This document shows, in pieces, positions 11,754 to 64,000 of a stretch of 64,000 bases of DNA (position 1 is the first letter of the stretch; each line of letters begins with the position of its first letter). Origin of the DNA: Kaistia geumhonensis. GTDB taxonomy: Bacteria; Pseudomonadota; Alphaproteobacteria; Rhizobiales; Kaistiaceae. The position numbers and the translations under genes were made by a program. The DNA lies in NCBI RefSeq assembly GCF_030815145.1, contig NZ_JAUSWJ010000001.1, positions 1,798,001 through 1,862,000 of the forward strand. The letters run 5' to 3'. A model generated the notes under the pieces. That model was given only the letters and a program-made list of their open reading frames with translations, was not told the DNA's origin and did not search any database.

Positions 11754-12409
11754 CGCGGCGCCTCCATGCGGGGAGTCCGGCCGGCGGCGACATCGTCCAG
11801 CATGCCGCGCAGCATCGCGATCTCGGTATCCGAGACCTCGTGCGGCCGGCCGGGGAAGAGATCGGCGCGCAGCACCGCGCCCTGCCCGGCGAGCGAGCCG
11901 ATGGCGTCGGCCGCCGCCTCGGCCGGGATCCAGGGATCGGCATCGGCGCCGGAGAGATAGACCGGAAGCCCGCGCGGCGCGCCCCTCGCGCGGCCATCGG
12001 CGGGGACGCCCACGCGGCAGCCCGTCAGGGCGGCCAGCGCCTCGGGCGCCGGAAGGCCGGCACAGACATATTCGATGGCGAGGCAGGCGCCCTGCGAGAA
12101 TCCGGCGAGCAGAAGCGGCAGGCCGGGATAGGCCGAGCGCGCCGCCGCCACAGCCGCCGCGAGATGATCGAGCGCCGTCGCCAGCTCGGCCCGGGCGACG
12201 GGCGTGAGCGGATCGACGGCGCGCGCCTGGTACCAGGCCCCCTTGGGTGCGCGCGGCAGCACGAAGGCGATGTCGTCCGCGCCGAGGCGGGCGAGCACAT
12301 GCGCCTCCATGTCTTCCGGCGTCTGGCCGCGGCCGTGGACGAAGACGCAGAGCGCCTTCGCCGACGGACCGGTCGGCCCGATCCTCAGGGGTCCGGGCTC
12401 GGACGTCAT
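11750..12409 (-). CDS. Alpha/beta-hydrolase, carboxylesterase/phospholipase type
   Basis: 219-residue serine hydrolase. It has the oxyanion-hole sequence FVHGRGQTPEDM near residue 23, the nucleophile elbow GFSQG near residue 103, an acid in SGADADPWIP and a histidine in GRPHEV, which together make a Ser-Asp-His triad. No signal peptide is present, so it is cytoplasmic. It overlaps both neighbours by 4 bp. In this operon it may cleave an aromatic ester or hydrolyse a lactone or ring-cleavage product; this is inferred from position only. Confidence 0.82.
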   Translation of the reverse strand: MTSEPGPLRIGPTGPSAKALCVFVHGRGQTPEDMEAHVLARLGADDIAFVLPRAPKGAWYQARAVDPLTPVARAELATALDHLAAAVAAARSAYPGLPLLLAGFSQGACLAIEYVCAGLPAPEALAALTGCRVGVPADGRARGAPRGLPVYLSGADADPWIPAEAAADAIGSLAGQGAVLRADLFPGRPHEVSDTEIAMLRGMLDDVAAGRTPRMEAPR

Positions 12410-37963: not shown

Positions 37964-40321
37964 TCATGCGATGCGGAACGTCACCTCATGCGTTCCTGCG
38001 GCGAGCGGCACCCGTGCGCCCTCCTCCGGCGTCGCGACCGATGCGCCGTCCACGGCGGCATCGCGATAGCCGGGCCGCAGCACCAGCGTCGCCTCCGCGC
38101 CGGACGGCACGGTGACGCGATAGCGGACCCGATCGCCCTCGACCGACCAGCCGGCCTCGATGCGGCCGGCGGCGGAATCGTGCTGCGCGCTGACGGGGCC
38201 GAGGCGCGGCCAGACGAGCGGCTCGAAGACGATGTGGCGGAAGCCGGGCTTCTCGGGATCGGGCCTGAAGCCGGCGGCCTGCTCGAACAGGAACTGGCAG
38301 ACGGCGCCATAGGCGTAGTGGTTGTAGGAGTTCATCGCCGGGTCGAAGGGCGTGCCGTCCTCGCGGATCGCATCCCATCGCTCCCAGATCGTGGTGGCCC
38401 CGTTCTTCACCTGGTAGAGCCAGCCCGGAACGCCTTCCTGAAGGAAGACTTCTTCCGCAAGCGCCGCCTCGCCGGCCTTGACGAGAGCGGGGAGCAGGGC
38501 CGGCGTGCCGATGAAGCCGGTGCCGATCCGACCGCCCGCCCGGGCGATCGTCGCCTTGAAATAGTCGATCGCCGCAGGAAGCTGCGCCTCGGGAATGAGG
38601 TCGTGCAGGATCGCCAGAGCATAGGAGGTCTGGTCGTCATAGACGAGGCGACCGGACGGCGCGATGAACTCCGTGGCGAAAGCCGCCTTCACCGCGTCGG
38701 CCATTGCCGACATCCGCGCCTCGACGGCGGTATCGCCGACGACGCGGGCGACGCGGGCCGTCAGGCGCGACGAGATATAGAGATAGATCGTCGCCGCGGC
38801 GTCGTCGCCGATGGTCGGCAACGGCTTCTCGCTCGGCCCCTTCGGCTGCAGCCAGTCACCGAAGGTGAAGCCCCGAGAACCCCAGGGCCGCGGCGGCCTG
38901 ACGATGGGCGCATTGCTGATCGACCAGATGAAATCGACCCATTTCACCATGGCCGGCAGCGTCTCGGCGAGGATATCGCGGTCGCCGTAGTGCTCGTAGA
39001 GCGTCCATGGCACGATGCAGATGGCGTCGCCCCATCCCGTCGAGCCGAAGAAGCCGGGATAGGCGTCGGGCCGCATCCGCGTCGGATCGGGCACGACATG
39101 GGCGATCGCGCCATCCTCGCGCTGGTCGGCCATGACGTCGCGCAGCCACTTCACCCAGAAGCTGTGGCTCTCATGGAGATAGCAGGCGGTGGGGGCGAAG
39201 ACCTGCGCGTCGCCCGTCCAGCCGAGGCGTTCGTCGCGCTGCGGGCAGTCGGTCGGCACCTCGATGAAGTTGGAGCGCTGCGACCAGATCGTGTTCTGGA
39301 CGAGGCGGCTCACCAGCGGATTGCCGCTGGTGAAATCGCCCGCTGGCGTCACGGCCGAGGTGATCGGCACCGAGACGATCTCGAGGATCTCGGCATGACC
39401 CGCGACCGTCACGCGGGCATAGCGGAAGCCCTGGAAGGTGAAGATCGGCCGATAGCTCTCCTCGCCCTCGCCCTTCAGCACATATTCGACGCGGGCCGGC
39501 GCGCTGCGATAGTTGGTATTGTCGAGATTGCGCTTCTGATCGAGAATCTCGGCATGCTCGACGATGATCTCGGCGCCGCGTTCGCCGCGCACGCGGAAGG
39601 CGACGTAGCCGCCGCAATTCTGGCCGAAATCGTAGAGGCGCCGGCCCTCGGCGTCCTCCCAGGCATCGACCGGCGACAGGGGCGCGAGCTCGCGGACGCC
39701 GCCGGTCTCGTAGGCGACGAGGCGGGCGGCATCGAAGGGAAGCGCCGCGCTGCCCGAGATCGCCTTCAGCTCGTCGAGGCGGGCGTCGTAGATCTCGCCG
39801 AAATAGATGCCGCTCTTGAGCACCGGCAGGAGGCCGCTCTCCCAGGTGGCGTCGGTCGCGAGCAGCAGCGGCGCATCGCCGCCGGGCCCGGCCCGGAGCT
39901 CGGCAATGGCGGCGATCCGGTCGCCCCAGGTGTTGTAGAGCGCATGCTGCTTTGCCCACATCATCTGCGAGCGATACCAACCATCGGCGAGCCAGATGTC
40001 GATGACGTTCTCGCCGGCGACGAGAAGATCGGCGACGTCGTAGGACTGGTAGGAGAGCCGCTTGTCATAGGCGGTCCAGCCCGGCGTCAGCAGGTCCTCG
40101 CCCACCCGATTGCCGTTGATGAAGGCGCGGTAGAGCCCCAGGGCGCTGATATGGAGCGTCTCGCCGCCGCCGACGCCGGACAGCGTGAAGCGCCGGCGCA
40201 GGAAGGACGCCTGCGTGCCGACGCCGGCATCGGTGAGCGGGCGGATCATCTGCGCCGTCCAGCGGATCGCGTCCGGACGGGCAGCCTCTATCGCCGCATG
40301 CGGGGGCATGGCGTCGTGCAT
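37964..40321 (-). CDS. Alpha-L-rhamnosidase (glycoside hydrolase family 78)
   Basis: 785-residue enzyme that removes terminal alpha-L-rhamnose from plant glycosides or pectin fragments. The N-terminal beta-sandwich domains (residues ~20-330) include LHISALGLYRAFINGNRVGEDLLTPGWT. The (alpha/alpha)6 catalytic domain (~340-690) has the signature DCPQRDERLGWTGDAQ with its acidic residues, and a late Glu in GATTIWERWDA. The C-terminal domain is a beta-sandwich. No signal peptide is seen, so it is probably cytoplasmic. The ATG at 40321 has GGGAGGA upstream. First gene of the operon, divergent from a LacI gene. Confidence 0.92.
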   Translation of the reverse strand: MHDAMPPHAAIEAARPDAIRWTAQMIRPLTDAGVGTQASFLRRRFTLSGVGGGETLHISALGLYRAFINGNRVGEDLLTPGWTAYDKRLSYQSYDVADLLVAGENVIDIWLADGWYRSQMMWAKQHALYNTWGDRIAAIAELRAGPGGDAPLLLATDATWESGLLPVLKSGIYFGEIYDARLDELKAISGSAALPFDAARLVAYETGGVRELAPLSPVDAWEDAEGRRLYDFGQNCGGYVAFRVRGERGAEIIVEHAEILDQKRNLDNTNYRSAPARVEYVLKGEGEESYRPIFTFQGFRYARVTVAGHAEILEIVSVPITSAVTPAGDFTSGNPLVSRLVQNTIWSQRSNFIEVPTDCPQRDERLGWTGDAQVFAPTACYLHESHSFWVKWLRDVMADQREDGAIAHVVPDPTRMRPDAYPGFFGSTGWGDAICIVPWTLYEHYGDRDILAETLPAMVKWVDFIWSISNAPIVRPPRPWGSRGFTFGDWLQPKGPSEKPLPTIGDDAAATIYLYISSRLTARVARVVGDTAVEARMSAMADAVKAAFATEFIAPSGRLVYDDQTSYALAILHDLIPEAQLPAAIDYFKATIARAGGRIGTGFIGTPALLPALVKAGEAALAEEVFLQEGVPGWLYQVKNGATTIWERWDAIREDGTPFDPAMNSYNHYAYGAVCQFLFEQAAGFRPDPEKPGFRHIVFEPLVWPRLGPVSAQHDSAAGRIEAGWSVEGDRVRYRVTVPSGAEATLVLRPGYRDAAVDGASVATPEEGARVPLAAGTHEVTFRIA

Positions 40322-40387
40322 CTCTTCCTCCCTTGCCGGGCCGTCATCGGCAATGCCGTTCCTCACGCGACCCGTAGACCGTTATAC

Positions 40388-52151: not shown

Positions 52152-53153
52152 ATGGACATTATCAGGATCGATGATATCAATCCTACAGATATCCTCGTCC
52201 GGATCCCGTCCTTGAAGCGAAACTTCCTCACGCTCCGAGCCGCCGACAGCCATGCCGTCCTGCGGTCCCTCGCCTCCCCCGCGCGGATCGACATCCTGCG
52301 GCTGCTGAGTGCAAAGGGGCCGATGAACGTGAACGAAATCAGCGCCGCGTTGTCGCTGCCGCAGTCGACCGTGGCGACGAGCGTGCTGGCGCTGGAGGAG
52401 GCCGCGCTCATCGAGACGCGCACCGTGAAGGCGCGCAAGGGCCACCAGAAGATCTGCTCGGCGCGCTATGACGAGATCGCGATCCGCTTCGACCTCGAGA
52501 GCGAGGCGCCGGTCGACGACGTCATCGAGGTGGCGATGCCGATCGGCCTCTACACCAGCTGCGCCGTCGAGGCCCCCTGCGGGCTCTGCTCGGCGGAGGG
52601 CATCATCGGCCTCCTTGACGTGCCGAACTTCTTCCTCGATCCGCGGCGCATGCAGGCGGGCCTCGTCTGGTTCCGCCGCGGCTATGTCGAATACAAATTT
52701 CCCAACAATGCCAGGATCTTGAACGAGACGATCGACGCGATCGACTTCACGATGGAGCTCTCATCCGAGGTCCCAGGCACCAACCCGGACTGGCCCTCCG
52801 ACATCACGCTCTGGGTCAACAACGTCGCCATCGGCACATGGACCTCGCCGGGGGACTTCGGCGACAAGCGCGGGCTCTTCACGCCGCGCTGGTGGAAGCT
52901 CGAAGGCTCGCAGTACGGCAAGCTGAAGACCTGGACCGTCTCGGATCGCGGGGCCTTCATCGATGGCGAGCGGGTGTCGGACGTGACGCTGGCCGATCTC
53001 GACATCGAGGGCCACCACTCGATCCGGCTTCGGATCGGCATCGCGGAAAATGCAATCCACCCCGGTGGAGTCAACATTTTCGGACGTGGTTTCGGCAATT
53101 TCGACCAGGATATTGTCATGCGGCTGCACCGCGACGGCGCCCGGCGCGATTGA
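52152..53153 (+). CDS. ArsR-type winged-helix regulator with large C-terminal domain
   Basis: 333-residue protein. A winged helix-turn-helix lies at residues ~30-110 (LRSLASPARIDILRLLSAKGPMNVNEISAALSLPQSTVATSVLALEEAALI). It is followed by ~220 residues with no HTH, containing a Cys cluster (SCAVEAPCGLC) and repeated Trp/Gly beta-type stretches (DWPSDITLWVNNVAIGTW). Simple ArsR proteins are ~100 residues, so this is a fusion-like architecture, possibly sugar-sensing. The ATG at 52152 lacks a clear Shine-Dalgarno; the longer upstream frame looks non-coding. Only 85 bp precede the arabinofuranosidase gene, the likely target. Confidence 0.82.
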   Translation: MDIIRIDDINPTDILVRIPSLKRNFLTLRAADSHAVLRSLASPARIDILRLLSAKGPMNVNEISAALSLPQSTVATSVLALEEAALIETRTVKARKGHQKICSARYDEIAIRFDLESEAPVDDVIEVAMPIGLYTSCAVEAPCGLCSAEGIIGLLDVPNFFLDPRRMQAGLVWFRRGYVEYKFPNNARILNETIDAIDFTMELSSEVPGTNPDWPSDITLWVNNVAIGTWTSPGDFGDKRGLFTPRWWKLEGSQYGKLKTWTVSDRGAFIDGERVSDVTLADLDIEGHHSIRLRIGIAENAIHPGGVNIFGRGFGNFDQDIVMRLHRDGARRD

Positions 53154-53177
53154 CAGACGTCGCGATACGGACCATAG

Positions 53178-53197
53178 TTTCCGGTATATATCGGAAA
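53178..53197 (+). promoter_or_regulatory. AT-rich palindrome in front of the arabinofuranosidase gene
   Basis: TTTCCG at 53178-53183 and CGGAAA at 53192-53197 flank GTATATAT, followed by TTGATATATAAA. It is the most AT-rich spot in this GC-rich region and lies 42 bp before the GTG start. A good candidate operator for the ArsR-type regulator. Confidence 0.5.
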
Positions 53198-53238
53198 ACT
53201 TGATATATAAATCCGGGAAAACGCACAGCGAGGTTGCC

Positions 53239-54747
53239 GTGAAAGCGAACGTGATCGTCCATAAGGACTTCGCGCTCTCCGCGATCGATGATCGCATCTA
53301 CAGCTCGTTCCTCGAGCATCTGGGGCGCGCGATCTATACGGGCATCTACGAGCCCGGCCATCCGACCGCCGATGCCGACGGCTTCCGGGGTGACGTGATC
53401 GACCTCGTCCGCGCCATCAACACACCCTATGTGCGTTATCCCGGCGGCAATTTCGTCTCCGCCTACAACTGGGAAGACGGCATAGGCCCGCGCGAGGATC
53501 GCCCGACCCGGCTCGATCTCGCCTGGAAGACGCGCGACAACAATGCCGTCGGCGTCAACGAATTCGTCGACTGGTGCAAGAAGGCCGGCACCAACCCGAT
53601 GCTGGCCATCAATCTCGGCTCGCGCGGCCTCGATGCGGCGCGCAATTTCGTCGAATACTGCAACCATCCCGGCGGCTCCTACTGGAGCGACCTGCGCCGC
53701 AAGCATGGCTGGGCCGACCCGCACAACGTCAAGCTCTGGTGCCTCGGCAACGAGATGGACGGCCCCTGGCAGGTCGGGCACAAGACGGCCGACGAATATG
53801 GCCGCCTCGCCAACGAGACCGCCAAGGCGCTGCGCCTGTTCGACCGCTCGCTGGAGCTGATCGTCTGCGGCTCGTCGAACTCCGACATGCCGACCTATCC
53901 GCAGTGGGAAGCGACCGTCCTCGAGCACACCTACGATTCGGTCGACCACATCTCGCTGCACATGTATTTCGCCAATGTCGAGCATGACACGCTCGGCTAT
54001 CTGGCCAAGGCCGAGAAGCTCGACCGCTATATCGGCACGATTGCCGGCGTGATCGACTTCATCAAGGCGAAGAAGCGTTCCAAGCGGAACGTCACGATCT
54101 CCTTCGACGAGTGGAACGTCTGGTATCACAGCCGCGAAGCCGACAAGAAGATCCTGGAGGGCGACGTCTGGCCGGACGAGCCGCATCTCCTCGAGGACAT
54201 CTACAATTTCGAGGACGTGCTGCAGGTCGGCGGCATCCTCAACACCTTCATCCGCCGCGCCGACCGGGTGAAGATCGCCTGCATCGCGCAGCTCGTGAAC
54301 GTGATCGCGCCGATCATGACCGAGAAGGGCGGCCCGGCCTGGAAGCAGACGATCTACTATCCGTTCCTCTATGCCTCGCTCTATGGCCGCGGCACGGCGC
54401 TCAACGCCGTCGTCGACGGACCGACCTATGACAGCGCCTTCGGCGACGACATCCCCTATCTCGATCTCTCGGCGGTGCGCTCGACCGCGGGCGACGCGCT
54501 GACCTTCTTCGTGGTCAACCGCCACCTGACGGACAGTCTCGATCTCTCGGCCTCGCTGCAGGGCTTTGCCGGGGCGCGGGTCGTCGAGCACATCCAGATG
54601 ACGCATCCGGACCTGCGCGCAGTCAACACGGCCGCCAATCCGGACAATGTCGCGCCGAAAACGGTGTCCGGCACGATCGTGGAAGACGGCACGCTGAAGT
54701 CCAAGCTGCCGCCGCTCTCCTACAACGTCATCCGCCTCGCGCTCTGA
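53239..54747 (+). CDS. Alpha-L-arabinofuranosidase (glycoside hydrolase family 51)
   Basis: 502-residue enzyme that removes alpha-L-arabinofuranose from arabinan, arabinoxylan or their oligosaccharides. The (beta/alpha)8 catalytic core has the acid/base Glu in KLWCLGNEMDGPW and the nucleophile Glu in TISFDEWNVWY. RYPGGNFVSAYNWEDGIGP is the GH51 signature. C-terminal ~120 residues are the beta-sandwich. No signal peptide, so intracellular. Start: GTG at 53239 with GCGAGG 5 bases upstream. Confidence 0.94.
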   Translation: MKANVIVHKDFALSAIDDRIYSSFLEHLGRAIYTGIYEPGHPTADADGFRGDVIDLVRAINTPYVRYPGGNFVSAYNWEDGIGPREDRPTRLDLAWKTRDNNAVGVNEFVDWCKKAGTNPMLAINLGSRGLDAARNFVEYCNHPGGSYWSDLRRKHGWADPHNVKLWCLGNEMDGPWQVGHKTADEYGRLANETAKALRLFDRSLELIVCGSSNSDMPTYPQWEATVLEHTYDSVDHISLHMYFANVEHDTLGYLAKAEKLDRYIGTIAGVIDFIKAKKRSKRNVTISFDEWNVWYHSREADKKILEGDVWPDEPHLLEDIYNFEDVLQVGGILNTFIRRADRVKIACIAQLVNVIAPIMTEKGGPAWKQTIYYPFLYASLYGRGTALNAVVDGPTYDSAFGDDIPYLDLSAVRSTAGDALTFFVVNRHLTDSLDLSASLQGFAGARVVEHIQMTHPDLRAVNTAANPDNVAPKTVSGTIVEDGTLKSKLPPLSYNVIRLAL

Positions 54748-55918: not shown

Positions 55919-57118
55919 TCAGCCGCCTTCGCCTGCCGCGAGCAACAGGGCCCGCGTGTGACGCGCGATCATGCGCTCCTCGTCGGTCGGCACCACGAGG
56001 ATGGCGACGGGGCTGCCCTTCGTCTCGACATGGAGATCGGATCGCGCATTGGCCTCGGCATCGAGCGCGAGGCCGGCGAAGGCGAGCGCCTCGACGACGC
56101 GCCGGCGGATGTCCGGTGCATTTTCGCCGATGCCGGCGGTGAAGACGAGCGCATCGAGACCGCCGATGGAGACGGCGAGCGAGGCCACCGCCTGGGCGAC
56201 GCGGCGGGAGAAGAAATCGAGCGCCATCGCCGCGCGCGGATCGTCGCTTTCGAGCAGCGTCCGCACATCGTTGCTGATCCCGGAGAGGCCGAGCAGCCCG
56301 CTCTCGCGATAGAGCATGGTGCCGATATCGTGCGCCGTCATGCCTTTCTGCTCGATGAGATGCAGGATGACGCCGGGATCGACCGCGCCGGACCGGGTTC
56401 CCATCGGGATCCCGTCGAGCGCCGTGAAGCTCATGGTCGTCTCGATGCTCCGGCCCCCCTGGAGCGCGCAGAGCGAGGCGCCGGAGCCGAGATGGGCGAT
56501 GACGACGCGGCGATCCGCAATCTCGGGCGCCAGGCGTCGCAGGGCGCCGCCGACATATTCATAGGAGAGCCCGTGGAAGCCGTAGCGGCGCACGCCTTCG
56601 TCATAGAGCGCGCGCGGCAGCGCGAAGCGGTCCGAAAGCTCCGGATGATCGCGATGGAAGGCGGTGTCGAAGCAGGCGACCTGCGGCAGGCCGGGATGCT
56701 CCTTCATCAGGAGGCGGATCGGATCGAGATTGCCGAGCTGGTGCAGCGGCGCCAGCGGGATGAAGCTCTCCAGCGTCTTCATGACCTCACCGTCGACCAC
56801 GACCGGATGCGTGAAGGTGGGACCGCCATGCACGACGCGATGGCCGACGCCGATCATCTCGTGGCCGCCGAGTCGATCCTCCAGCCAGTCCATGACGATC
56901 TTCTGCGCGGCTCCGGAATCGGCGGCGGCGCCCTTGTCGAGGCTCCGTTCGTCCAGCGGCCTGCCATCGCCGTCCTTCGCTTTCAGCCGCGCGTCTCCGC
57001 CGATGCCGTCGAGCACGCCGGAAAAGACGGTATCGAGCGCCTCGCCCGCCCCGAGCGCGTAGAGCTTGAACTTGATGCTCGAGCTTCCGGCATTGATTAC
57101 GAGGATGGCGTCGCTCAT
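55919..57118 (-). CDS. ackA: Acetate/propionate kinase
   Basis: 399-residue ASKHA-fold kinase making acetyl phosphate from acetate and ATP (reversible). Signatures are VINAGSSSIKFKLY at residue ~6 and VACFDTAFHRDHP and YGFHGLSYEYV in mid-protein, with GHRVVHGG before them. The ATG at 57118 has GGAGGAAC upstream. No phosphotransacetylase gene is adjacent, so the partner is elsewhere; a propionate kinase role is possible. Confidence 0.93.
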   Translation of the reverse strand: MSDAILVINAGSSSIKFKLYALGAGEALDTVFSGVLDGIGGDARLKAKDGDGRPLDERSLDKGAAADSGAAQKIVMDWLEDRLGGHEMIGVGHRVVHGGPTFTHPVVVDGEVMKTLESFIPLAPLHQLGNLDPIRLLMKEHPGLPQVACFDTAFHRDHPELSDRFALPRALYDEGVRRYGFHGLSYEYVGGALRRLAPEIADRRVVIAHLGSGASLCALQGGRSIETTMSFTALDGIPMGTRSGAVDPGVILHLIEQKGMTAHDIGTMLYRESGLLGLSGISNDVRTLLESDDPRAAMALDFFSRRVAQAVASLAVSIGGLDALVFTAGIGENAPDIRRRVVEALAFAGLALDAEANARSDLHVETKGSPVAILVVPTDEERMIARHTRALLLAAGEGG

Positions 57119-57216
57119 CGTTCCTCCAGTGAAGTGGCGGCTCGGAGCCGTCGCGGACGGGTCCGCCACCGTGCCGGCTCCCTCGCACGACTATAGCCCC
57201 CGAAGGAGGACGGAGC

Positions 57217-57651: not shown

Positions 57652-57702
57652 GAGCCGCGGCAGGCCGGTGCTTGCCAAGCCGCCGGCTTCGGCGGATGAT
57701 AC

Positions 57703-57713
57703 TGGTATGACCA
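57703..57713 (+). promoter_or_regulatory. GntR-operator-like palindrome over the gntR start codon
   Basis: TGGTATGACCA has TGGT and ACCA arms around three bases, the pattern bound by FCD-type GntR regulators such as NanR and LldR. It covers the ATG at 57707, consistent with self-repression. A second copy with 3 of 4 arm matches is at 58720-58730. Confidence 0.55.
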
Positions 57714-58438
57714 CTGAACATGATCCGATCAAGCGCCGGAAGCTCTCGGACGAGGTGCAGCAGCGGCTGCTCGCGATCATCGAGACCGAGCGCCTCGGGC
57801 CCGGCGACGCGCTGCCCTCGGAGCGCGACCTGATGACGGCCTTCGGCGTCGGCCGTCCGGCGATCCGCGAGGCGATGCAGAGCCTGCAGCGCATGGGGCT
57901 GGTCGAGATCCGCCATGGCGAGCGGGCGCGCATCGCCGAGCCCTCCTTCGGCCGCATGGTCGAGCAGATGTCGGAATCGATGCGCCACATCCTGTCGCAT
58001 TCGCCGGCCAGCCTCGCCCATCTCAAAGAGGCACGCGCGACCTTCGAGATGGAGATGGCACGGATCGCGGCGCAGCGAGCCAAGCCCGCCGATGTCGCCC
58101 GCCTCAAGCGCACCATCGATGCGCAGGAGGCGCAGAGCCACAACCCGGCCGTCTTCCTGCAGCTGGATGCGCGTTTCCATCGGGAGATCGCGGCCATCAG
58201 CGGCAATCCCATCTTCACCTCGCTGAGCGAGGCGCTGCTGCGATGGCTGCAGAGCTTCCATGTCGACCTGTTGCGCGTGCCAGGCCTCGAGAAGCTGACG
58301 CTCGCCGAGCACCGTCAGATCGTCGAGGAAATCGCCGCCGGCAATGTCGCCGGGGCAGCCAAGGCGATGAGCGACCATCTGTATCGCGCCAACGACCTTT
58401 ATCATCAGGACAATTTCGCCCGCCCCTCCGAAACCTGA
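57707..58438 (+). CDS. GntR/FadR-family regulator (FCD type, NanR-like)
   Basis: 243-residue regulator. Winged helix-turn-helix at residues ~10-75 (LPSERDLMTAFGVGRPAIREAMQSLQRMGLVEI) and an all-helical FCD ligand domain (~95-235), with the metal-binding Asp/His pattern DARFHREIAAISGNP and HL. It resembles NanR in ELGERARV-like HGERARIAEPS. The ATG at 57707 (MTTEHDPIKRRK) is used; an upstream frame start at 57668 is possible. It is 327 bp upstream of the apiose-type operon and shares an operator-like sequence with that operon's promoter. Confidence 0.9.
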   Translation: MTTEHDPIKRRKLSDEVQQRLLAIIETERLGPGDALPSERDLMTAFGVGRPAIREAMQSLQRMGLVEIRHGERARIAEPSFGRMVEQMSESMRHILSHSPASLAHLKEARATFEMEMARIAAQRAKPADVARLKRTIDAQEAQSHNPAVFLQLDARFHREIAAISGNPIFTSLSEALLRWLQSFHVDLLRVPGLEKLTLAEHRQIVEEIAAGNVAGAAKAMSDHLYRANDLYHQDNFARPSET

Positions 58439-58719
58439 GAGGGCGCCGGGAAACGCGCGGCGGCATCATTCGTGGTCGCAGCCGGAACAGATGCGGCCCG
58501 TCATGACGGTCTGTGCGCGCCTGAGCTTCACAGCCTCGATCTGATCTTGGCGTCGCCGCCTCGTCACGAAGCGGGGCGAGCGGCTGAGCATGGCGGCTCG
58601 GCCAACCGGCTCCCCGTTGCCGGCCCTTCCCTTTCTCGCTCCTTTGCTGGCTCTCTCCCGGCCTCTGCCCGCTCGCCGCGTCGATGCCGTCAGCAAGGCG
58701 CTTGTGACGACTCGTCTTC
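58439..58719. other. Spacer between gntR and the apiose-type operon, no supported gene
   Basis: 281 bp without a convincing frame on either strand. Short frames here are Arg/Ser-rich shadows. The downstream 50 bp carry the operon promoter. Confidence 0.5.
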
Positions 58720-58730
58720 TGGTATAATCA
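58720..58730 (+). promoter_or_regulatory. Operator-like palindrome with embedded -10 TATAAT
   Basis: TGGTATAATCA combines a perfect -10 hexamer (TATAAT, 58723-58728) with a TGGT-N3-ATCA operator-like palindrome. It lies 36 bp before the first gene of the operon. The upstream -35 is weak (CTTGTG at 58701-58706, 16-base spacing). GntR bound here would block RNA polymerase directly. Confidence 0.6.
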
Positions 58731-58765
58731 CTGTTCCATCATAAGATCGCGCCGCGGGGAGGACC

Positions 58766-60667
58766 ATGGGCGACGCTCGATCCCGGCCTCTTGCATCGGA
58801 TCAGGATGCCGACGGCGCAGCCGCGCGCCGGCTTTCGGCCGGCCCGCTCACGGTCGAGATCGACGACGGCATGCTGCGCGGCGTCCGCTGGCATGGCGTC
58901 GAGGTCGTCCGCGGCATCAACTGCCTGGTGCGCGACGCGCATTGGGGAACGCTGGCGGCGACGGCGGGCGACGAGCACTTCGACGAGAGCGGGCAGGCGT
59001 TTCGCTACGAGCGCCGCTTCGTGCTGGAGGACGGCAGCGCGACGATCGTGCTGACGGCGGCAGGCGCCTCGGACGGCAGCCTCGCCGTCACCGCCGCCAT
59101 CACCGCCGTCCGGGATATCGCGACGAACCGCGCCGGGCTGACGCTGCTGCATCCCATCGCCGGCGTCGCCGGGACGACGCTCGCGATCCGGCATGGCGAC
59201 GGCAGCGTCGAGCAGGCCAGCTTTCCGGCGCTGATCCAGCCGGCCCAGCCGGCTTTCGACATCGCGGGCCTCCGACACGAGATCGGCGGCATCGGCGTCG
59301 AGATCGCCTTCGAGGGCGAGGTCTTCGAAATGGAGGACCAGCGCAACTGGTCGGACGCCTCGTTCAAGACCTATTGCCGGCCGCTTGCGTTGCCGACGCC
59401 CTACACGATCGAGACCGGCACCACGGTCGCCCAGCGCATCGCGATCCGCTGCACGGGCGCGCCAAAGGCGGCGGGCGGCACCGCAGCCGCGCAACCGCTG
59501 GCGCTCGGGCCGGAGATCGGCCGCCTGCCGGAGGTCACGCTCGCCGTCGATGCCGACGCTGTCGCCGGGGCCGAGGCGATGGCGCTCCTCGCCGGAGCCG
59601 GCATCGGCCGGTTGTCGCTGCGCGTTTCCACGGATGTGGCGGCCGAACGGCTCTCCGCCCTGGCAACGATCTGCGGCGGACGGGGCGTCGACCTCGAGGC
59701 CGTCGTCGTCGGCCGCGATCCTCTCGAAGCGCTGGGACGGCTGAGAGGCGCGCTTGACGCCGCCGGCATCGCCCCGGAGCGGGTTCTGGCGCTGCCGGAG
59801 GCGTATCTTTCCTCCTACCAGCCTTCCGGCCCCTGGCCGGACGGGCCGCGGCCCGAGGCGGCGATCGCGGCCGCTCGCGCCGTGTTCCCGGCCGCGCGGA
59901 TCGGCGGCGGCATGCTGACGAGCTTCACCGAGTTCAACCGCTGCCGGCCGCCGGCGGATCTGGTCGACTATGTCGGTCACGGCACGACGGCGATCGTGCA
60001 TGCCGCCGACGACCGGTCGGTGATGGAGACGCTGGAGGCGCTGCCGGCGATCTTCGCGAGCGCCGCGGCGATCGGACAAGGCAGGCCCTACCGGCTCGGC
60101 CTCGTCTCGATCGGCATGCGGTCGAACGCCTATGGACCGGAGCGCGCGCCGGACCCGGCGGCCCGGCCCCTGGCCATGGCCAAGGCCGATCCGCGACGGG
60201 CGACGCTCTTCGCCGCCGCCTTCGCGGTCGGCGCCGTCGCGGCGACGGAAGGGTCCGCCGTCGAGGCGCTCGCGCTCGGCTCGCCGACCGGCGCCTTCGG
60301 CATCGTGCGCGAGGAAACGGCCGAGCCCTGGCCGGCGCTGACGGAGGGGATGCGCGTCTTCCCGCTCTATCATGTGGTGCGCTGGCTGGCGGAACGCTCC
60401 GGCCCGCCGCGGCGGAGCCTCTCCGGCCTGCCGGCGCATGTCATGGGCATCGCCAGCGGACGCGAGGCGGTGATCGCCAATTGTGGCCTCCGGCCCGTGA
60501 CGATCGCGCTCGCTTCTCCCGCCGCCTGCCTGATGCTCGACGAAGAGAGCCGCCCCGCCGCCGCGCTCGACGCGAACTTCCTGGATCGTCCGGCCGCAGT
60601 CGTCGATAGGATGACGCTTGCACCCTCGTCCACGGCCTTCCTGGCCTTCACCGGAGATCTCTCATGA
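58766..60667 (+). CDS. apnL: Probable D-apionolactone hydrolase (D-apionate lactonase)
   Basis: 633-residue protein without a common named domain that I recognise from sequence. It has an N-terminal beta-rich half (LTVEIDDGMLRGVRWHGVEVVRGINCLVRDAHWGTL) and a C-terminal barrel-like half (residues ~270-530). Its length and its position directly before a Gfo/Idh dehydrogenase, a RuBisCO-like protein and a DUF1537 kinase fit ApnL, the lactonase of the D-apiose pathway described in Rhizobium-type bacteria. It would open D-apionolactone to D-apionate. GGGGAGGA lies immediately before the ATG. The call rests mainly on context and memory of the family. Confidence 0.65.
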   Translation: MGDARSRPLASDQDADGAAARRLSAGPLTVEIDDGMLRGVRWHGVEVVRGINCLVRDAHWGTLAATAGDEHFDESGQAFRYERRFVLEDGSATIVLTAAGASDGSLAVTAAITAVRDIATNRAGLTLLHPIAGVAGTTLAIRHGDGSVEQASFPALIQPAQPAFDIAGLRHEIGGIGVEIAFEGEVFEMEDQRNWSDASFKTYCRPLALPTPYTIETGTTVAQRIAIRCTGAPKAAGGTAAAQPLALGPEIGRLPEVTLAVDADAVAGAEAMALLAGAGIGRLSLRVSTDVAAERLSALATICGGRGVDLEAVVVGRDPLEALGRLRGALDAAGIAPERVLALPEAYLSSYQPSGPWPDGPRPEAAIAAARAVFPAARIGGGMLTSFTEFNRCRPPADLVDYVGHGTTAIVHAADDRSVMETLEALPAIFASAAAIGQGRPYRLGLVSIGMRSNAYGPERAPDPAARPLAMAKADPRRATLFAAAFAVGAVAATEGSAVEALALGSPTGAFGIVREETAEPWPALTEGMRVFPLYHVVRWLAERSGPPRRSLSGLPAHVMGIASGREAVIANCGLRPVTIALASPAACLMLDEESRPAAALDANFLDRPAAVVDRMTLAPSSTAFLAFTGDLS

Positions 60668-61710
60668 CTGTCCGTCGCGGCGCCCTCATCGGATGCGGCT
60701 TCTTCGCGCGTAATCACATGCATGGCTGGGCCGAAGTCGAGGGCGCGGAAATCGTCGCCGTCTGCGACCGCGACACGGCCAAGGCCGAGCGCATGCGGGC
60801 CGATTTCGGCGTGCCGCATGCCTATGGCGACGCCGAGGAGATGCTGCGCACCGAGAAGCTCGACTTCGTCGATGTCGTCACCACCTCGCCCTTCCACAAA
60901 CAACTCGTCGAGCTCGCGGCCCGGCATGGCGTCGCCGCCATCTGCCAGAAGCCGTTCGCCGACACCTATGCCGATGCGGAGGCCATGGTGCGGGCCTGCG
61001 AGGCGGCCGGCGTGCCGCTCGCCGTGCACGAGAATTTCCGCTGGCAGCGGCCCTTCGTGGAACTCGGCGAGCGGATCGCGGCGGGCCGCATCGGCAAGCC
61101 CGTCTATGCGCGCATCTCGTTCCGCCACGCCTTCGACTACTACGCCAACCAGCCTTATCTCACCGAGGTCGAGCGCCTCAGCCTGATGGATATCGGGCTG
61201 CATCTCTACGATCTCGCCCGCTATCTCGTCGGCGAGGTCGAGACGCTCGCCTGCCGCACGCAGCGCATCAATCCGATCGTGCGCGGAGAGGACTCGTTCA
61301 CCTCGCTGCTCGGCCATGTCGGGGGCGCGACCTCGGTGGTCGAGTGCTCCGCCTTCGCGAAATACGACCCCGATCCGTTCCCGGAGACGACCGCCGTCGT
61401 CGAGGGCACCGAGGGCACGCTGGAGCTGCTGCGTGGCTATCGGCTCATCGAGCATCACGCCGGATCGAGCTTCGAGACCAATGTCGATGTCGAGGTGCCG
61501 GCCTGGGGCGCCAAGCCCTGGCAGGTCGTGCAGCGCAGCGTCGCGGCGTTCAACCGCCACTTCGTCGACGTGCTGAACGGCAAGGCCGAGGCGCAGCCCT
61601 CCGGCGCGCACAATCTCGGCACCATGGCGCTGGCGCTCGCCTCCTACGATTCCGCCGCGAGCGGCAGCGTGATCCGCATGAGCGAATGGCGAGAGACGGG
61701 ACATGGTTGA
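60664..61710 (+). CDS. apsD: Gfo/Idh/MocA oxidoreductase, probable D-apiose dehydrogenase
   Basis: 348-residue NAD(P)-dependent dehydrogenase. N-terminal Rossmann motif GALIGCGFFARNH, the lysine motif CQKPFADT and the catalytic Asp-His region SLMDIGLHLYDLARYL. In the D-apiose pathway ApsD oxidises D-apiose to D-apionolactone. Assignment comes from the operon: lactonase before, RuBisCO-like decarboxylase and DUF1537 kinase after. ATG overlaps the lactonase stop by 4 bp; its own end overlaps the next gene by 8 bp. Family membership is certain, the substrate is inferred. Confidence 0.75.
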   Translation: MTVRRGALIGCGFFARNHMHGWAEVEGAEIVAVCDRDTAKAERMRADFGVPHAYGDAEEMLRTEKLDFVDVVTTSPFHKQLVELAARHGVAAICQKPFADTYADAEAMVRACEAAGVPLAVHENFRWQRPFVELGERIAAGRIGKPVYARISFRHAFDYYANQPYLTEVERLSLMDIGLHLYDLARYLVGEVETLACRTQRINPIVRGEDSFTSLLGHVGGATSVVECSAFAKYDPDPFPETTAVVEGTEGTLELLRGYRLIEHHAGSSFETNVDVEVPAWGAKPWQVVQRSVAAFNRHFVDVLNGKAEAQPSGAHNLGTMALALASYDSAASGSVIRMSEWRETGHG

Positions 61711-62953
61711 ACGCATCGAGGCCGATTATCTCGTCGAGACGGCGCATGATCCGCGCGTCGCCGTCGAGGTCATGGCCGGAGAGCAGTCGTCGGGCACCTT
61801 CGTTCCGGTGCCCGGCGAGACGCCCGAGCTCAAGGAGCGCTCGGCTGCGCGCATCGAGGCGCTGGAGATCGTCGGGGAGCGGGCCGAGCCCAGCCTTCCC
61901 GGCGCCAGCCATCCGGACGGCCGGCGCATCCTGCTGGCGCGGGCGACGCTTTCCTGGCCGCTCGCCAATATGGGGCCCTCGCTGCCGAACCTGATGGCGA
62001 CGGTCGCCGGAAATCTCTTCGAGCTGAAGCAGTTCTCCGGCCTGCGCCTCCTCGACATCCGCCTCCCCGCCGCCTTCGCCGCCGCCTATCCGGGGCCGAA
62101 ATTCGGCATCGAGGGCACGCGGCGCCTCGCCGGCGTCGAAGGACGGCCGCTGATCGGCACCATCGTCAAGCCGAGCGTCGGCTTCTCGCCGGCCGAGACC
62201 GCCGACCTCGTGCGCCTCCTCGCGGAGGCCGGGATCGACTTCGTCAAGGACGACGAGTTGCAGGCCGACGGCCTGCATTGCCCGTTCGACGAGCGGGTGC
62301 GCGCCGTGATGCGGGTGGTCAACGACCATGCCGACCGCTCCGGCAAGAAGGTGATGTTCGCCTTCAACCTCTCCGGCGAGATCGACGAGATGCGGCGGCG
62401 CCACGATCTCGTGCTCGCCGAAGGCGGCACCTGCGTGATGGCCTCGATCAACGCGGTCGGCCTTTCCGGCATGATCGCGCTCGGCCGCCACAGCGAACTG
62501 CCGATCCATGCCCATCGCAACGGCTGGGGCGCATTGTCCCGCGCTCCAGCGCTCGGCTTCTCCTATGTCGCCTTCCAGAAGTTCTGGCGGCTGGCCGGCG
62601 CCGACCACATGCATGTCAACGGCCTCGCCAACAAGTTCGCCGAAAGCGACGAGAGCGTCATCGCCTCGGCACGCGCATGCCTGACGCCGATGTTCGCCGA
62701 CAAGCCCTGCATCGCCATGCCTGTCTTCTCCTCGGGTCAGACGGTGCGGCAGCCGCCGGCGACTTTCGCAGCGCTCGGCAGCACCGACCTCATCTATGCG
62801 GCCGGCGGCGGCATCATGGCTCATCCCGACGGCCCGGCCGCCGGCGTCGAGAGCCTCAGGCAATCCTGGGCCGCCGCCATGGCGGGCATCCCGCTCGAGA
62901 CCCATGCGCGCGACCACGCCGCGCTCGCGGCGGCGCTCGGAGGCCGGTCATGA
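61703..62953 (+). CDS. oiaX: RuBisCO-like protein, probable 3-oxo-isoapionate-4-phosphate decarboxylase
   Basis: 416-residue form IV RuBisCO-like protein. The metal-site triad is present: Lys182-Asp-Asp184-Glu185 (DFVKDDE, the carbamylated lysine and its acidic partners). The loop Lys156 is kept in GTIVKPSVG, but the second lysine of the RuBisCO KPK motif is Ser, so it cannot be a true CO2-fixing enzyme. His271-Arg272 (IHAHRNGWG) match RuBisCO His294-Arg295. Next to a DUF1537 kinase and apiose-type dehydrogenase it fits OiaX, which decarboxylates 3-oxo-isoapionate 4-phosphate to L-erythrulose 1-phosphate. The transcarboxylase/hydrolase relative OiaT is the alternative. Confidence 0.78.
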   Translation: MVERIEADYLVETAHDPRVAVEVMAGEQSSGTFVPVPGETPELKERSAARIEALEIVGERAEPSLPGASHPDGRRILLARATLSWPLANMGPSLPNLMATVAGNLFELKQFSGLRLLDIRLPAAFAAAYPGPKFGIEGTRRLAGVEGRPLIGTIVKPSVGFSPAETADLVRLLAEAGIDFVKDDELQADGLHCPFDERVRAVMRVVNDHADRSGKKVMFAFNLSGEIDEMRRRHDLVLAEGGTCVMASINAVGLSGMIALGRHSELPIHAHRNGWGALSRAPALGFSYVAFQKFWRLAGADHMHVNGLANKFAESDESVIASARACLTPMFADKPCIAMPVFSSGQTVRQPPATFAALGSTDLIYAAGGGIMAHPDGPAAGVESLRQSWAAAMAGIPLETHARDHAALAAALGGRS

Positions 62954-64000
62954 CGGCGCCTGCGGACCAGTTGCCGGAGGGTGTCCTCGTAGCCTGGTAT
63001 GGCGACGACTTCACCGGCTCGGCCGCGACCATGGAAGTGCTGGCCTTTGCCGGCCTCGCCTCGGTGCTCTTTCTCGACATTCCGACCGCCGAGGACCTCG
63101 CCCGCTTTCCCGGCGCGCGCGGCATCGGCATCGCCGGCATCGCCCGCTCCAAGCCGCCCGCCTGGATGGACGAGAACCTGCCGCCGGTCTTCTCGGCGCT
63201 CGCGGGGATCGGCGCGCCGGTCAGCCATTACAAGATCTGCTCGACGCTCGATTCCGCGCCGCATGTCGGCTCCATCGGCCGCGCCGTCGATCTCGCCGCG
63301 CCCATCCTCGGCGGCGCATGGCATCCGCTGGTCGTGGCGGCGCCGCCGATCGGCCGCTACCAGGCCTTCGGTACGCTCTTCGCCCTCTATGACGGCGCGG
63401 TCTACCGGCTCGACCGGCATCCGACCATGAGCCGCCACCCCGTGACCCCGATGCACGAGGCGGATGTCCGCCGCCATCTCGGTTTGCAGACCACGCGGCC
63501 AATCGGCCTCGTCGATCGGCTCGGCCTTCATCGCGATGCCGGCGCGGCGCTCGCCGCCGCGCGCGACGGTGGGGCGGACATCGTCGCCATCGACGTCATG
63601 GACGACGAGGATCTCGCTTGCGCCGGCCGCCTCGTCTGGGAGAACCGCGGCGAGCGGCTGCTTGCGATCGGCTCGCAGGGGATCGAATATGCGCTGGTGG
63701 CCCATTGGCGCGAGGCCGGACTGATCGATGCCGCGCCGGCCGCGCCCTCGGCCGGTCCGGCGGAACGGATGGCCGTCGTCTCCGGCTCCTGCGCGCCGCA
63801 GACCGCGGCGCAGATCGCCCATGCTGCCGCCGCAGGTTTCGAGATCGTCCGGCTCGACGCCAGCCGCGCCGTTAACGCAGCGGCGTGGCAGGCGGAACTC
63901 GGCCGCGTGGAGGCGGCGGCACTCGCCGCGCTCGGCCGCGGTCGCGCGCCGATCGTCGCGACGGCCGAGGGGCCGGACGATCCGGCCGTGGCGGAAGTCA
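62950..64000 (+). CDS. oiaK: DUF1537-family acid-sugar kinase, probable 3-oxo-isoapionate kinase (partial)
   Basis: At least 350 residues of a four-carbon acid sugar kinase family protein, cut by the window end. The N-terminal domain has AWYGDDFTGSAATMEVLA (substrate-site Asp) and YKICSTLDSAPHVGSIGRA; the middle shows AIGSQGIEYAL and VVSGSCAPQTAAQI, which starts the nucleotide-binding domain. In the D-apiose pathway OiaK phosphorylates 3-oxo-isoapionate for the RuBisCO-like decarboxylase encoded just before it. Start overlaps the oiaX stop by 4 bp. An oxidoisomerase gene (apnO) would be expected beyond base 64000. Confidence 0.75.
   Translation, partial: MTAPADQLPEGVLVAWYGDDFTGSAATMEVLAFAGLASVLFLDIPTAEDLARFPGARGIGIAGIARSKPPAWMDENLPPVFSALAGIGAPVSHYKICSTLDSAPHVGSIGRAVDLAAPILGGAWHPLVVAAPPIGRYQAFGTLFALYDGAVYRLDRHPTMSRHPVTPMHEADVRRHLGLQTTRPIGLVDRLGLHRDAGAALAAARDGGADIVAIDVMDDEDLACAGRLVWENRGERLLAIGSQGIEYALVAHWREAGLIDAAPAAPSAGPAERMAVVSGSCAPQTAAQIAHAAAAGFEIVRLDASRAVNAAAWQAELGRVEAAALAALGRGRAPIVATAEGPDDPAVAEV

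What the first reader, a model, noticed from the sequence alone, without database searches (positions are those of the whole stretch)
57703..64000. D-apiose-type catabolic operon centred on a RuBisCO-like protein
Four translationally coupled genes (lactonase-like, Gfo/Idh dehydrogenase, RuBisCO-like protein, DUF1537 kinase) match in family and order the D-apiose to L-erythrulose 1-phosphate route described for Rhizobium-type bacteria. Apiose is a branched plant sugar, fitting the arabinosidase and rhamnosidase genes nearby. Lys182/Asp184/Glu185 and His271-Arg272 of the RuBisCO metal site are kept while one loop lysine is Ser, as expected for a decarboxylase-type relative. The pathway is known; its GntR control and its setting here look undescribed.
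Basis: partly seen in the sequence, partly recalled or inferred. Interest (0 to 1): 0.75.

Follow-up and report, generated by a model that had tools for sequence, protein, structure and literature searches.

The report
Apiose operon with a RuBisCO-like enzyme
A bacterium of the genus Kaistia carries a complete gene set for eating the branched plant sugar apiose; its RuBisCO-like enzyme most likely cuts the sugar acid into phosphoglycerate and glycolate, as RuBisCO would, instead of simply removing carbon dioxide as first proposed.

Summary
The operon is real and complete: NanR-subfamily GntR regulator, then overlapping apnL-like, Gfo/Idh (apsD-like), RuBisCO-like protein (RLP) and DUF1537 kinase (oiaK-like) genes. 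The fifth gene, an apnO-like PGDH_C oxidoisomerase, starts 347 bases beyond the window edge. The D-apiose/D-apionate reading stands; the decarboxylase (OiaX) assignment does not. The 30 OiaX sequences over the NCBIfam cut-off that I aligned (of 45) all have E60D, N123G, H327Q. The window RLP and the RLP of Xanthobacter autotrophicus Py2 (reported transcarboxylase/hydrolase, OiaT) keep E60, N123 and H327. Identity is 61% to the Py2 RLP, 41-47% to OiaX-type rows. The RpiB family (DerI-type isomerase) is in 44 of 44 OiaX genomes tested; this complete genome has none, and one TIM, but has glcDEF. Best reading: apiose to 3-phosphoglycerate + glycolate, not L-erythrulose 1-phosphate. The tree puts the RLP in neither characterised clade, so residues and genome content carry the argument. 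The word TGGTATAA, here an extended -10 box before apnL, occurs in 50 of 64 RLP loci with a NanR-like gene and 6 of 56 without: a probable operator. New member of a known kind.

The parts
57668..58438 (+). NanR-subfamily GntR/FCD regulator
   Evidence: NCBIfam NF003011 294.2 bits, cut-off 260; Pfam GntR + FCD
58702..58728 (+). predicted promoter/operator: TTGTGA (58702-58707), 15 nt, extended -10 TGGTATAAT (58720-58728), 37 bases before the apnL-like start
   Evidence: sequence checked; TGGTATAA in 50 of 64 RLP loci with a NanR-like gene, 6 of 56 without (Fisher). The consensus promoter scan found no site here; it asks for a 16-18 nt spacer
58766..60667 (+). apnL-like D-apionate lactonase, divergent
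   Evidence: NCBIfam ApnL 434.8 bits, E 5e-130, cut-off 750 not reached
60664..61710 (+). apsD-like Gfo/Idh/MocA dehydrogenase (D-apiose to D-apionolactone, inferred)
   Evidence: Pfam; 48% identical to the Gfo/Idh gene of the R. leguminosarum OiaX locus
61703..62953 (+). RuBisCO-like protein, OiaT-type by residues
62950..64000 (+). oiaK-like DUF1537 kinase; runs on to 64350 beyond the window (L002 5951-7351). Next gene, also beyond the window: apnO-like PGDH_C oxidoisomerase at 64347-65195 (L002 7348-8196)
   Evidence: NCBIfam OiaK 552.6 bits, E 6e-166, cut-off 700 not reached; coordinates from L002. apnO-like: Pfam PGDH_C 193.6 bits, 54% identical to the gene beside the Py2 RLP

Best explanation
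A NanR-subfamily-controlled operon for D-apiose (or D-apionate). The Gfo/Idh enzyme oxidises D-apiose to the lactone, the apnL-like enzyme opens it to D-apionate, the PGDH_C enzyme oxidises and rearranges it to 3-oxo-isoapionate, and the DUF1537 kinase makes the 4-phosphate. This substrate is a 2-carboxy-3-keto sugar phosphate, like RuBisCO's own intermediate. The RLP then most likely acts as OiaT: it moves the carboxyl group within the enediol intermediate and hydrolyses the C-C bond as RuBisCO does, giving 3-phosphoglycerate and glycolate; glycolate oxidase (GlcDEF) can take the glycolate. Shown by sequence: gene set, residues, genome content. Inferred: every reaction, the substrate and the operator's function. 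The reaction scheme is recalled from Carter et al. 2018, which I could not read.
For: 1) Residues: 30 of 30 aligned OiaX sequences over cut-off (of 45) have D/G/Q at E60/N123/H327; query and Py2 RLP have E/N/H. Of 139 RLP rows 122 have E..N..H of this family's pattern, 9 D..G..Q, the other 8 are outgroups or a broken row. 2) Identity 61% to the Py2 RLP, 41-47% to 9 OiaX-type rows (7 named); of 54 columns fixed within each group but different, the query matches the Py2 group (5 rows) in 37, OiaX in 6, neither in 11. 3) The Py2 RLP, whose strain is reported to have the transcarboxylase/hydrolase (PMC6302742, passage), scores 430.9 on the OiaX model, like the query (454.5); OiaX scores are 730.6-797.4 and nothing lies between 480.0 and 730.6. 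The query's kinase scores higher on OiaK (552.6) than the kinase of an OiaX locus (484.1). 4) Own genome: no RpiB family, one TIM; glcD, glcE and glcF side by side, glcF over its cut-off, glcE just below and glcD below. RpiB family in 44 of 44 OiaX genomes against 9 of 26 other-RLP genomes of Rhizobiaceae. A TIM gene in 4 of 8 OiaX-type loci against 0 of 98 query-type loci. 5) Pyruvate kinase in 6 of 98 query-type, 0 of 8 OiaX-type loci. 6) On a quick tree query, K. soli RLP and Py2 group are together on one side against 13 others including OiaX, support 97; query and Py2 lie on the same side of a 92/99 branch that cuts off OiaX.
Against: The careful trees do not put the query in the Py2 clade; it lies on an unresolved short-branched trunk, and one AU test on a quick tree did not reject grouping it with OiaX (p 0.77). 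ApnL, OiaX and OiaK models are all below cut-off. OiaX is one clade, so the residue and genome contrasts rest on few evolutionary changes. RpiB is also present in 17 of 36 other genomes with a query-type RLP (one of them, G468, has an OiaX as well), and one query-type locus (L022) has an RpiB-like gene nearby. The TIM and RpiB references came from two of the eight OiaX-type loci. Pyruvate kinase occurs only in loci of another layout. No rhizobial-type apiose transporter was found (no DUF2291).
Confidence: 0.7

Rival explanations
1. The RLP is an OiaX-type decarboxylase that makes L-erythrulose 1-phosphate; the residue changes of the OiaX clade came after the function.
For: NCBIfam's best match is OiaX at 3e-136; same gene set as the R. 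leguminosarum OiaX locus; the AU test on the quick tree did not reject query with OiaX.
Against: 454.5 of 700 bits; E60, N123, H327 kept; genome lacks the RpiB family and a second TIM, whereas 44 of 44 OiaX genomes have RpiB.
Confidence: 0.17
2. The operon serves another branched sugar or sugar acid with the same chemistry, for example D-hamamelose, for which an RLP of Ochrobactrum anthropi is described.
For: All three NCBIfam models stay below cut-off, ApnL most clearly (434.8 against 1051.1 and 770.4 in two other loci). PMC8914248 (passages) cites an RLP in hamamelose use ending in 3-phosphoglycerate and glycolate.
Against: An apnO-like step is needed where the carboxyl group must migrate, as in apionate; hamamelonate already has the branched alpha carbon (inference). 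The query-type RLP stands with an apnO-like gene in 80 of 98 loci.
Confidence: 0.1
3. The trunk-type RLP is a third activity on the same substrate family, neither OiaX nor OiaT.
For: Unresolved trunk position; near relatives are paired with SDR/TRAP/pyruvate kinase or VOC/TRAP genes instead of ApnO.
Against: RuBisCO residues and ApnO/OiaK partners as in the Py2 locus.
Confidence: 0.06

Closest known systems
OiaT route of Xanthobacter autotrophicus Py2 (Carter et al. 2018, recalled; its RLP seen only in a passage of PMC6302742)
   Same: RLP, OiaK and PGDH_C ApnO-like gene in one cluster; E60/N123/H327 kept; RLP 61% identical
   Different: In G224 the cluster has an MFS transporter and a LysR-type gene, and no ApnL or Gfo/Idh match in the 20 kb read; here NanR, apnL-like and apsD-like genes are in the operon
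OiaX route of rhizobia (annotated loci of R. leguminosarum WSM1325, R. esperanzae N561, Rhizobium sp. C104)
   Same: NanR, RLP, kinase, PGDH_C, Gfo/Idh, ApnL-like gene; same TGGTATAAT box before the WSM1325 RLP
   Different: RLP named OiaX, with D/G/Q residues; ABC transporter with DUF2291; TIM and RpiB isomerases in the latter two loci
D-hamamelose RLP of Ochrobactrum anthropi (Kim et al. 2018, not seen; cited in PMC8914248)
   Same: RLP in branched-sugar use, end products given as 3-phosphoglycerate and glycolate
   Different: sequence not compared here; partner genes not seen
3NWR, RLP crystal structure
   Same: nearest solved structure by sequence, E 8e-134
   Different: Asn in place of Ser at the K177 position in the printed alignment, like the VOC/TRAP-type group

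Membership tests
OiaX (3-oxo-isoapionate-4-phosphate decarboxylase) | NCBIfam NF042437 over cut-off 700 | tested here: not met
   454.5 bits; scores leave a gap from 480.0 to 730.6 bits
OiaX (3-oxo-isoapionate-4-phosphate decarboxylase) | D/G/Q at E60/N123/H327 (a feature found here, not a published definition) | tested here: not met
   query E/N/H; OiaX 30 of 30 aligned D/G/Q
OiaX (3-oxo-isoapionate-4-phosphate decarboxylase) | inside the OiaX clade | tested here: not met
   OiaX one side of a branch, 100/100, without the query
OiaX (3-oxo-isoapionate-4-phosphate decarboxylase) | outlet for L-erythrulose 1-phosphate (second TIM and RpiB family) | tested here: not met
   no RpiB, one TIM in the genome
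OiaT (transcarboxylase/hydrolase) | RuBisCO residues E60, N123, H327, K334 with OiaK and ApnO partners | tested here: met
OiaT (transcarboxylase/hydrolase) | inside the clade of the Py2 enzyme | tested here: inconclusive
   Py2 clade 100/100 without the query; trunk unresolved
OiaT (transcarboxylase/hydrolase) | activity on 3-oxo-isoapionate 4-phosphate | not testable with these tools
   needs an enzyme assay
D-apiose oxidative pathway (Carter 2018) | ApsD, ApnL, ApnO, OiaK and an RLP together | tested here: met
   five overlapping genes; ApnL and OiaK models below equivalog cut-offs, ApsD and ApnO by Pfam and similarity only
D-apiose oxidative pathway (Carter 2018) | ABC transporter of the rhizobial type (DUF2291) | tested here: not met
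   no DUF2291 in the genome; other transporters not excluded
MtnW / RuBisCO forms I-III | family models over cut-off | tested here: not met
   MtnW 142.1 of 513.6 and 170.1 of 409, rubisco_III 240.5 of 497.45
NanR subfamily regulator | NCBIfam NF003011 over cut-off 260 | tested here: met
   294.2 bits

The most novel reading that the evidence does not exclude
The trunk-type RLP is close to the ancestral enzyme of the apiose RLPs: of the twelve RuBisCO active-site residues checked it keeps all but K177. With its kinase it forms a two-gene core that takes different feeder modules (ApnO; SDR with TRAP and pyruvate kinase; VOC with TRAP) for different branched sugar acids, some of them undescribed. 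It could capture outside CO2 on an enediol tetrose phosphate under some conditions.
Probability: 0.12. Interest if true: 0.75.

Novelty: new member of a known kind. Interest (0 to 1): 0.42.

Why it matters
Many RLPs of this type are annotated only as 'ribulose-bisphosphate carboxylase large subunit family protein'. A three-residue test (E60, N123, H327), backed by isomerase content, sorts them into likely decarboxylases and likely RuBisCO-style carboxyl-transfer/hydrolysis enzymes, so that carbon flow from plant apiose can be predicted. The second kind would be a close functional analogue of RuBisCO's late steps, useful for studying how carboxylation chemistry was kept or lost. The shared operator box would let the apiose regulon, with its unknown transporters and hydrolases, be found by sequence.

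Tried and rejected
Rejected: MtnW and RuBisCO forms I-III; OiaX membership (membership table); a DUF2291 transporter in the genome. Inconclusive: the AU test on the quick tree (p 0.77, the free search had missed a better tree); two later one-clade calls were trivial because the Py2 group is by itself one side of a branch. A Py2 plasmid accession recalled by me was not in the collection, and the taxonomy look-up found no such name. The paper search for OiaT/OiaX gave no relevant paper among the 20 listed of 23. The consensus promoter scan gave no site. In one search the columns marked S379, G380 and G381 are one column off (one search shows the region again), so they are not used. A structure prediction was not run: 3NWR is near by sequence. 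Papers of which I saw passages that added nothing decisive: PMC10176493, PMC10103415, PMC8319343, PMC10173188, PMC12663927. Rows dropped: L067 (RLP read out of frame, branch length 10) and the later trees; nine rows in all from the tree; 30 of 75 rows from that. Some loci were fetched twice under two ids (L005/L262, L013/L211, L011/L214, L063/L162), so counts hold a few repeats.
Full report
What is there. The window is bases 1798001-1862000 of a single-contig 4.59 Mb genome. It belongs to the genus of Kaistia soli: G001, listed as same genus, has its RLP at the same contig position as G064, the genome of the K. soli locus L006. The RLP is the only PF00016 match in the genome. In the genus it is patchy: 4 of 14 genomes, own included. 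The five-gene operon and its overlaps were read directly. The fifth gene, an apnO-like PGDH_C protein, lies just outside the window (64347-65195 in window counting); a convergent glutaminase gene ends 12 bases after its stop, so the operon ends there.

Pathway. NCBIfam matches are ApnL (E 5e-130), OiaX (3e-136) and OiaK (6e-166), all below the equivalog cut-offs; PGDH_C and Gfo/Idh by Pfam. Calibration: the Py2 RLP scores 430.9 on OiaX and its kinase 810.7 on OiaK; the R. leguminosarum WSM1325 RLP 785.4, kinase 484.1, ApnL 1051.1. So a low OiaX score is what a non-OiaX apiose RLP gives, and OiaK below cut-off also occurs beside a named OiaX. PMC11747546 (passages) reports growth on D-apiose of a marine strain with the five enzyme names of this pathway, its RLP there called decarboxylase.

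OiaX or OiaT. Its one RLP with E <= 1e-70 on the OiaX model lies between oiaK (over cut-off) and an apnO-like gene. Active-site positions follow the list in PMC5786004 (passage); 12 of its 14 residues were mapped, and the query keeps 11, K177 being Ser. OiaX-type sequences have E60D, N123G and H327Q in 9 of 9 (7 named, 2 in their clade) and in 30 of 30 over cut-off. The Py2 RLP and four relatives (5 of 5) and the query keep E, N and H, and so do 30 of 30 sub-cut-off Xanthobacteraceae sequences. Chemically this fits: a decarboxylase needs only the enediolate, whereas a transcarboxylase/hydrolase must re-form and cleave a RuBisCO-like carboxylated intermediate (inference from a recalled mechanism).

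Genome context. OiaX loci of R. esperanzae, Rhizobium sp. C104 and R. gallicum carry a TIM and an RpiB-family gene; these would be LerI and DerI (names recalled; PMC10190533, passages, gives eryH and eryI among the five genes that take erythritol to erythrose 4-phosphate). Over eight OiaX-type loci TIM is in 4 and RpiB in 4; over 98 query-type loci 0 and 1; over 13 Asn-177 loci none (Fisher p 1.4e-5 for TIM). The references came from two of the eight. Over genomes, the RpiB family is in 44 of 44 OiaX, 9 of 26 other-RLP and 3 of 10 RLP-free Rhizobiaceae (Fisher p 4e-10 for the first two), in 17 of 36 named genomes with a query-type RLP (G468 among them has both types), and absent here. OiaX is one clade and genomes are related, so the p-values overstate the evidence. 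The genome has glcD (449.4 of 567.9 bits), glcE (274.4 of 284) and glcF (469.9, cut-off 333) side by side, so glycolate can probably be used. Pyruvate kinase genes stand in six query-type loci, all in an SDR/LysR/TRAP setting; this suits 3-phosphoglycerate as product but is not this operon's setting.

Tree. Two careful trees (75 and 45 rows) give OiaX as one clade (100/100) on a long branch and the Py2 group as another (100/100). The query pairs with K. soli on a trunk of short, weakly supported branches. In one search query and Py2 lie on the same side of a 92/99 branch that cuts off OiaX. On a quick tree (66 rows) path length from the query is 1.62 to the Py2 RLP and 3.3-3.4 to OiaX, and query with Py2 group is one side against 13 others (support 97); the same call's AU test did not reject query with OiaX (p 0.77). 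So the trees exclude membership in the OiaX clade but do not show membership in the Py2 clade.

Control. The regulator is NanR-subfamily. Upstream of pathway genes in loci with a NanR-like gene, GGTATA or its complement gave 55 hits in 54 of 127 regions, against a mean of 9.2 (most 19) in mononucleotide shuffles. Over 120 loci, TGGTATAA anywhere in the locus is found in 50 of 64 with a NanR-like gene (E <= 1e-20) and 6 of 56 without (Fisher p 2.5e-14). Some of its 75 sites lie inside genes, and other words of the same composition are more frequent (top 203), so the contrast between loci, not the raw count, is the evidence. Here the box forms an extended -10 (TGGTATAAT) 37 bases before the apnL-like start; a repressor there would block the promoter (inference). 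It was the only copy in the 115 kb around the operon and in the 14 kb glc stretch. Searches for apiose with NanR and for Kaistia with apiose found no paper in the held library.

Uptake and feeders. No DUF2291, the mark of the rhizobial transporter, is in the genome. A gene with alpha-L-rhamnosidase domains and one with an alpha-L-arabinofuranosidase C-terminal domain lie 18-21 and 4-6 kb upstream, but nothing ties them to the operon. Near 80 of 98 query-type RLPs is an apnO-like gene; 12 have SDR, LysR and TRAP genes without it, 1 VOC and TRAP, 5 none of these. All 13 loci of the related Asn-177 group have VOC and TRAP genes.

Verdict. Known pathway, new member, with the enzyme assignment corrected from decarboxylase to probable transcarboxylase/hydrolase, and a predicted operator. 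Confidence 0.7 for the OiaT-type reading, about 0.85 for apiose or apionate use in general.

Noticed in passing
L261 (closest relative G013), 11804-11977: Between regulator and Gfo/Idh gene only the C-terminal 58 residues of the apnL-like protein are left (50% identity, E 4e-10), while the other genes stay under selection: the lactonase has been lost there.
   Followed up: yes
L006 12552-18407, L005 (= L262); L150, L050, L028: A nucleoside-hydrolase-family gene and an ABC solute-binding protein near the RLP operon in K. soli, Mesorhizobium sp. BR1-1-16 and Microvirga; in the first two the binding-protein gene has its own TGGTATAAT box. Possible apioside hydrolase and transporter.
   Followed up: partly
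L171, L228, L213, L162, L042, L046, L083: RLP and kinase with SDR, LysR and TRAP genes, six of these seven with pyruvate kinase, no apnO-like gene: a probable different sugar acid feeding the same core.
   Followed up: partly
L151-L156, L161, L165, L166, L169, L212, L226, L227: RLP group with Asn at K177, in 13 of 13 loci with VOC, kinase and TRAP genes, no apnO-like gene: an RLP pathway for which I saw no description, though I made no paper search for it.
   Followed up: partly
L168 (Halalkalicoccus plasmid), L222 (Rufibacter plasmid): RLP and kinase pairs in a haloarchaeon (with PGDH_C and GntP permease) and in a Bacteroidota (with a pectinesterase gene near).
   Followed up: no
L163 and L164 (genome G018): One genome of the same family has both types: the D/G/Q type with TIM, RpiB and DhaKL beside it, the E/N/H type with NanR, apnO-like and oiaK-like genes.
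   Followed up: no
L148 against window RLP, residues 341-346: At the column of RuBisCO S379 the WSM1325 OiaX has Gly, while query and Py2 RLP keep Ser: possibly a fourth marker, seen in one OiaX only.
   Followed up: no
window 55919-57169, 37967-40366, 53050-54744: Acetate kinase just upstream on the other strand; genes with alpha-L-rhamnosidase and alpha-L-arabinofuranosidase domains.
   Followed up: no
PMC8914248 (passages): The paper links a rhizobial RLP of CIAT652 to CO2 fixation; an RLP on a CIAT652 plasmid is 46% identical to the query, in the range of named OiaX (H88). Its residues and its identity with the paper's gene were not checked.
   Followed up: no
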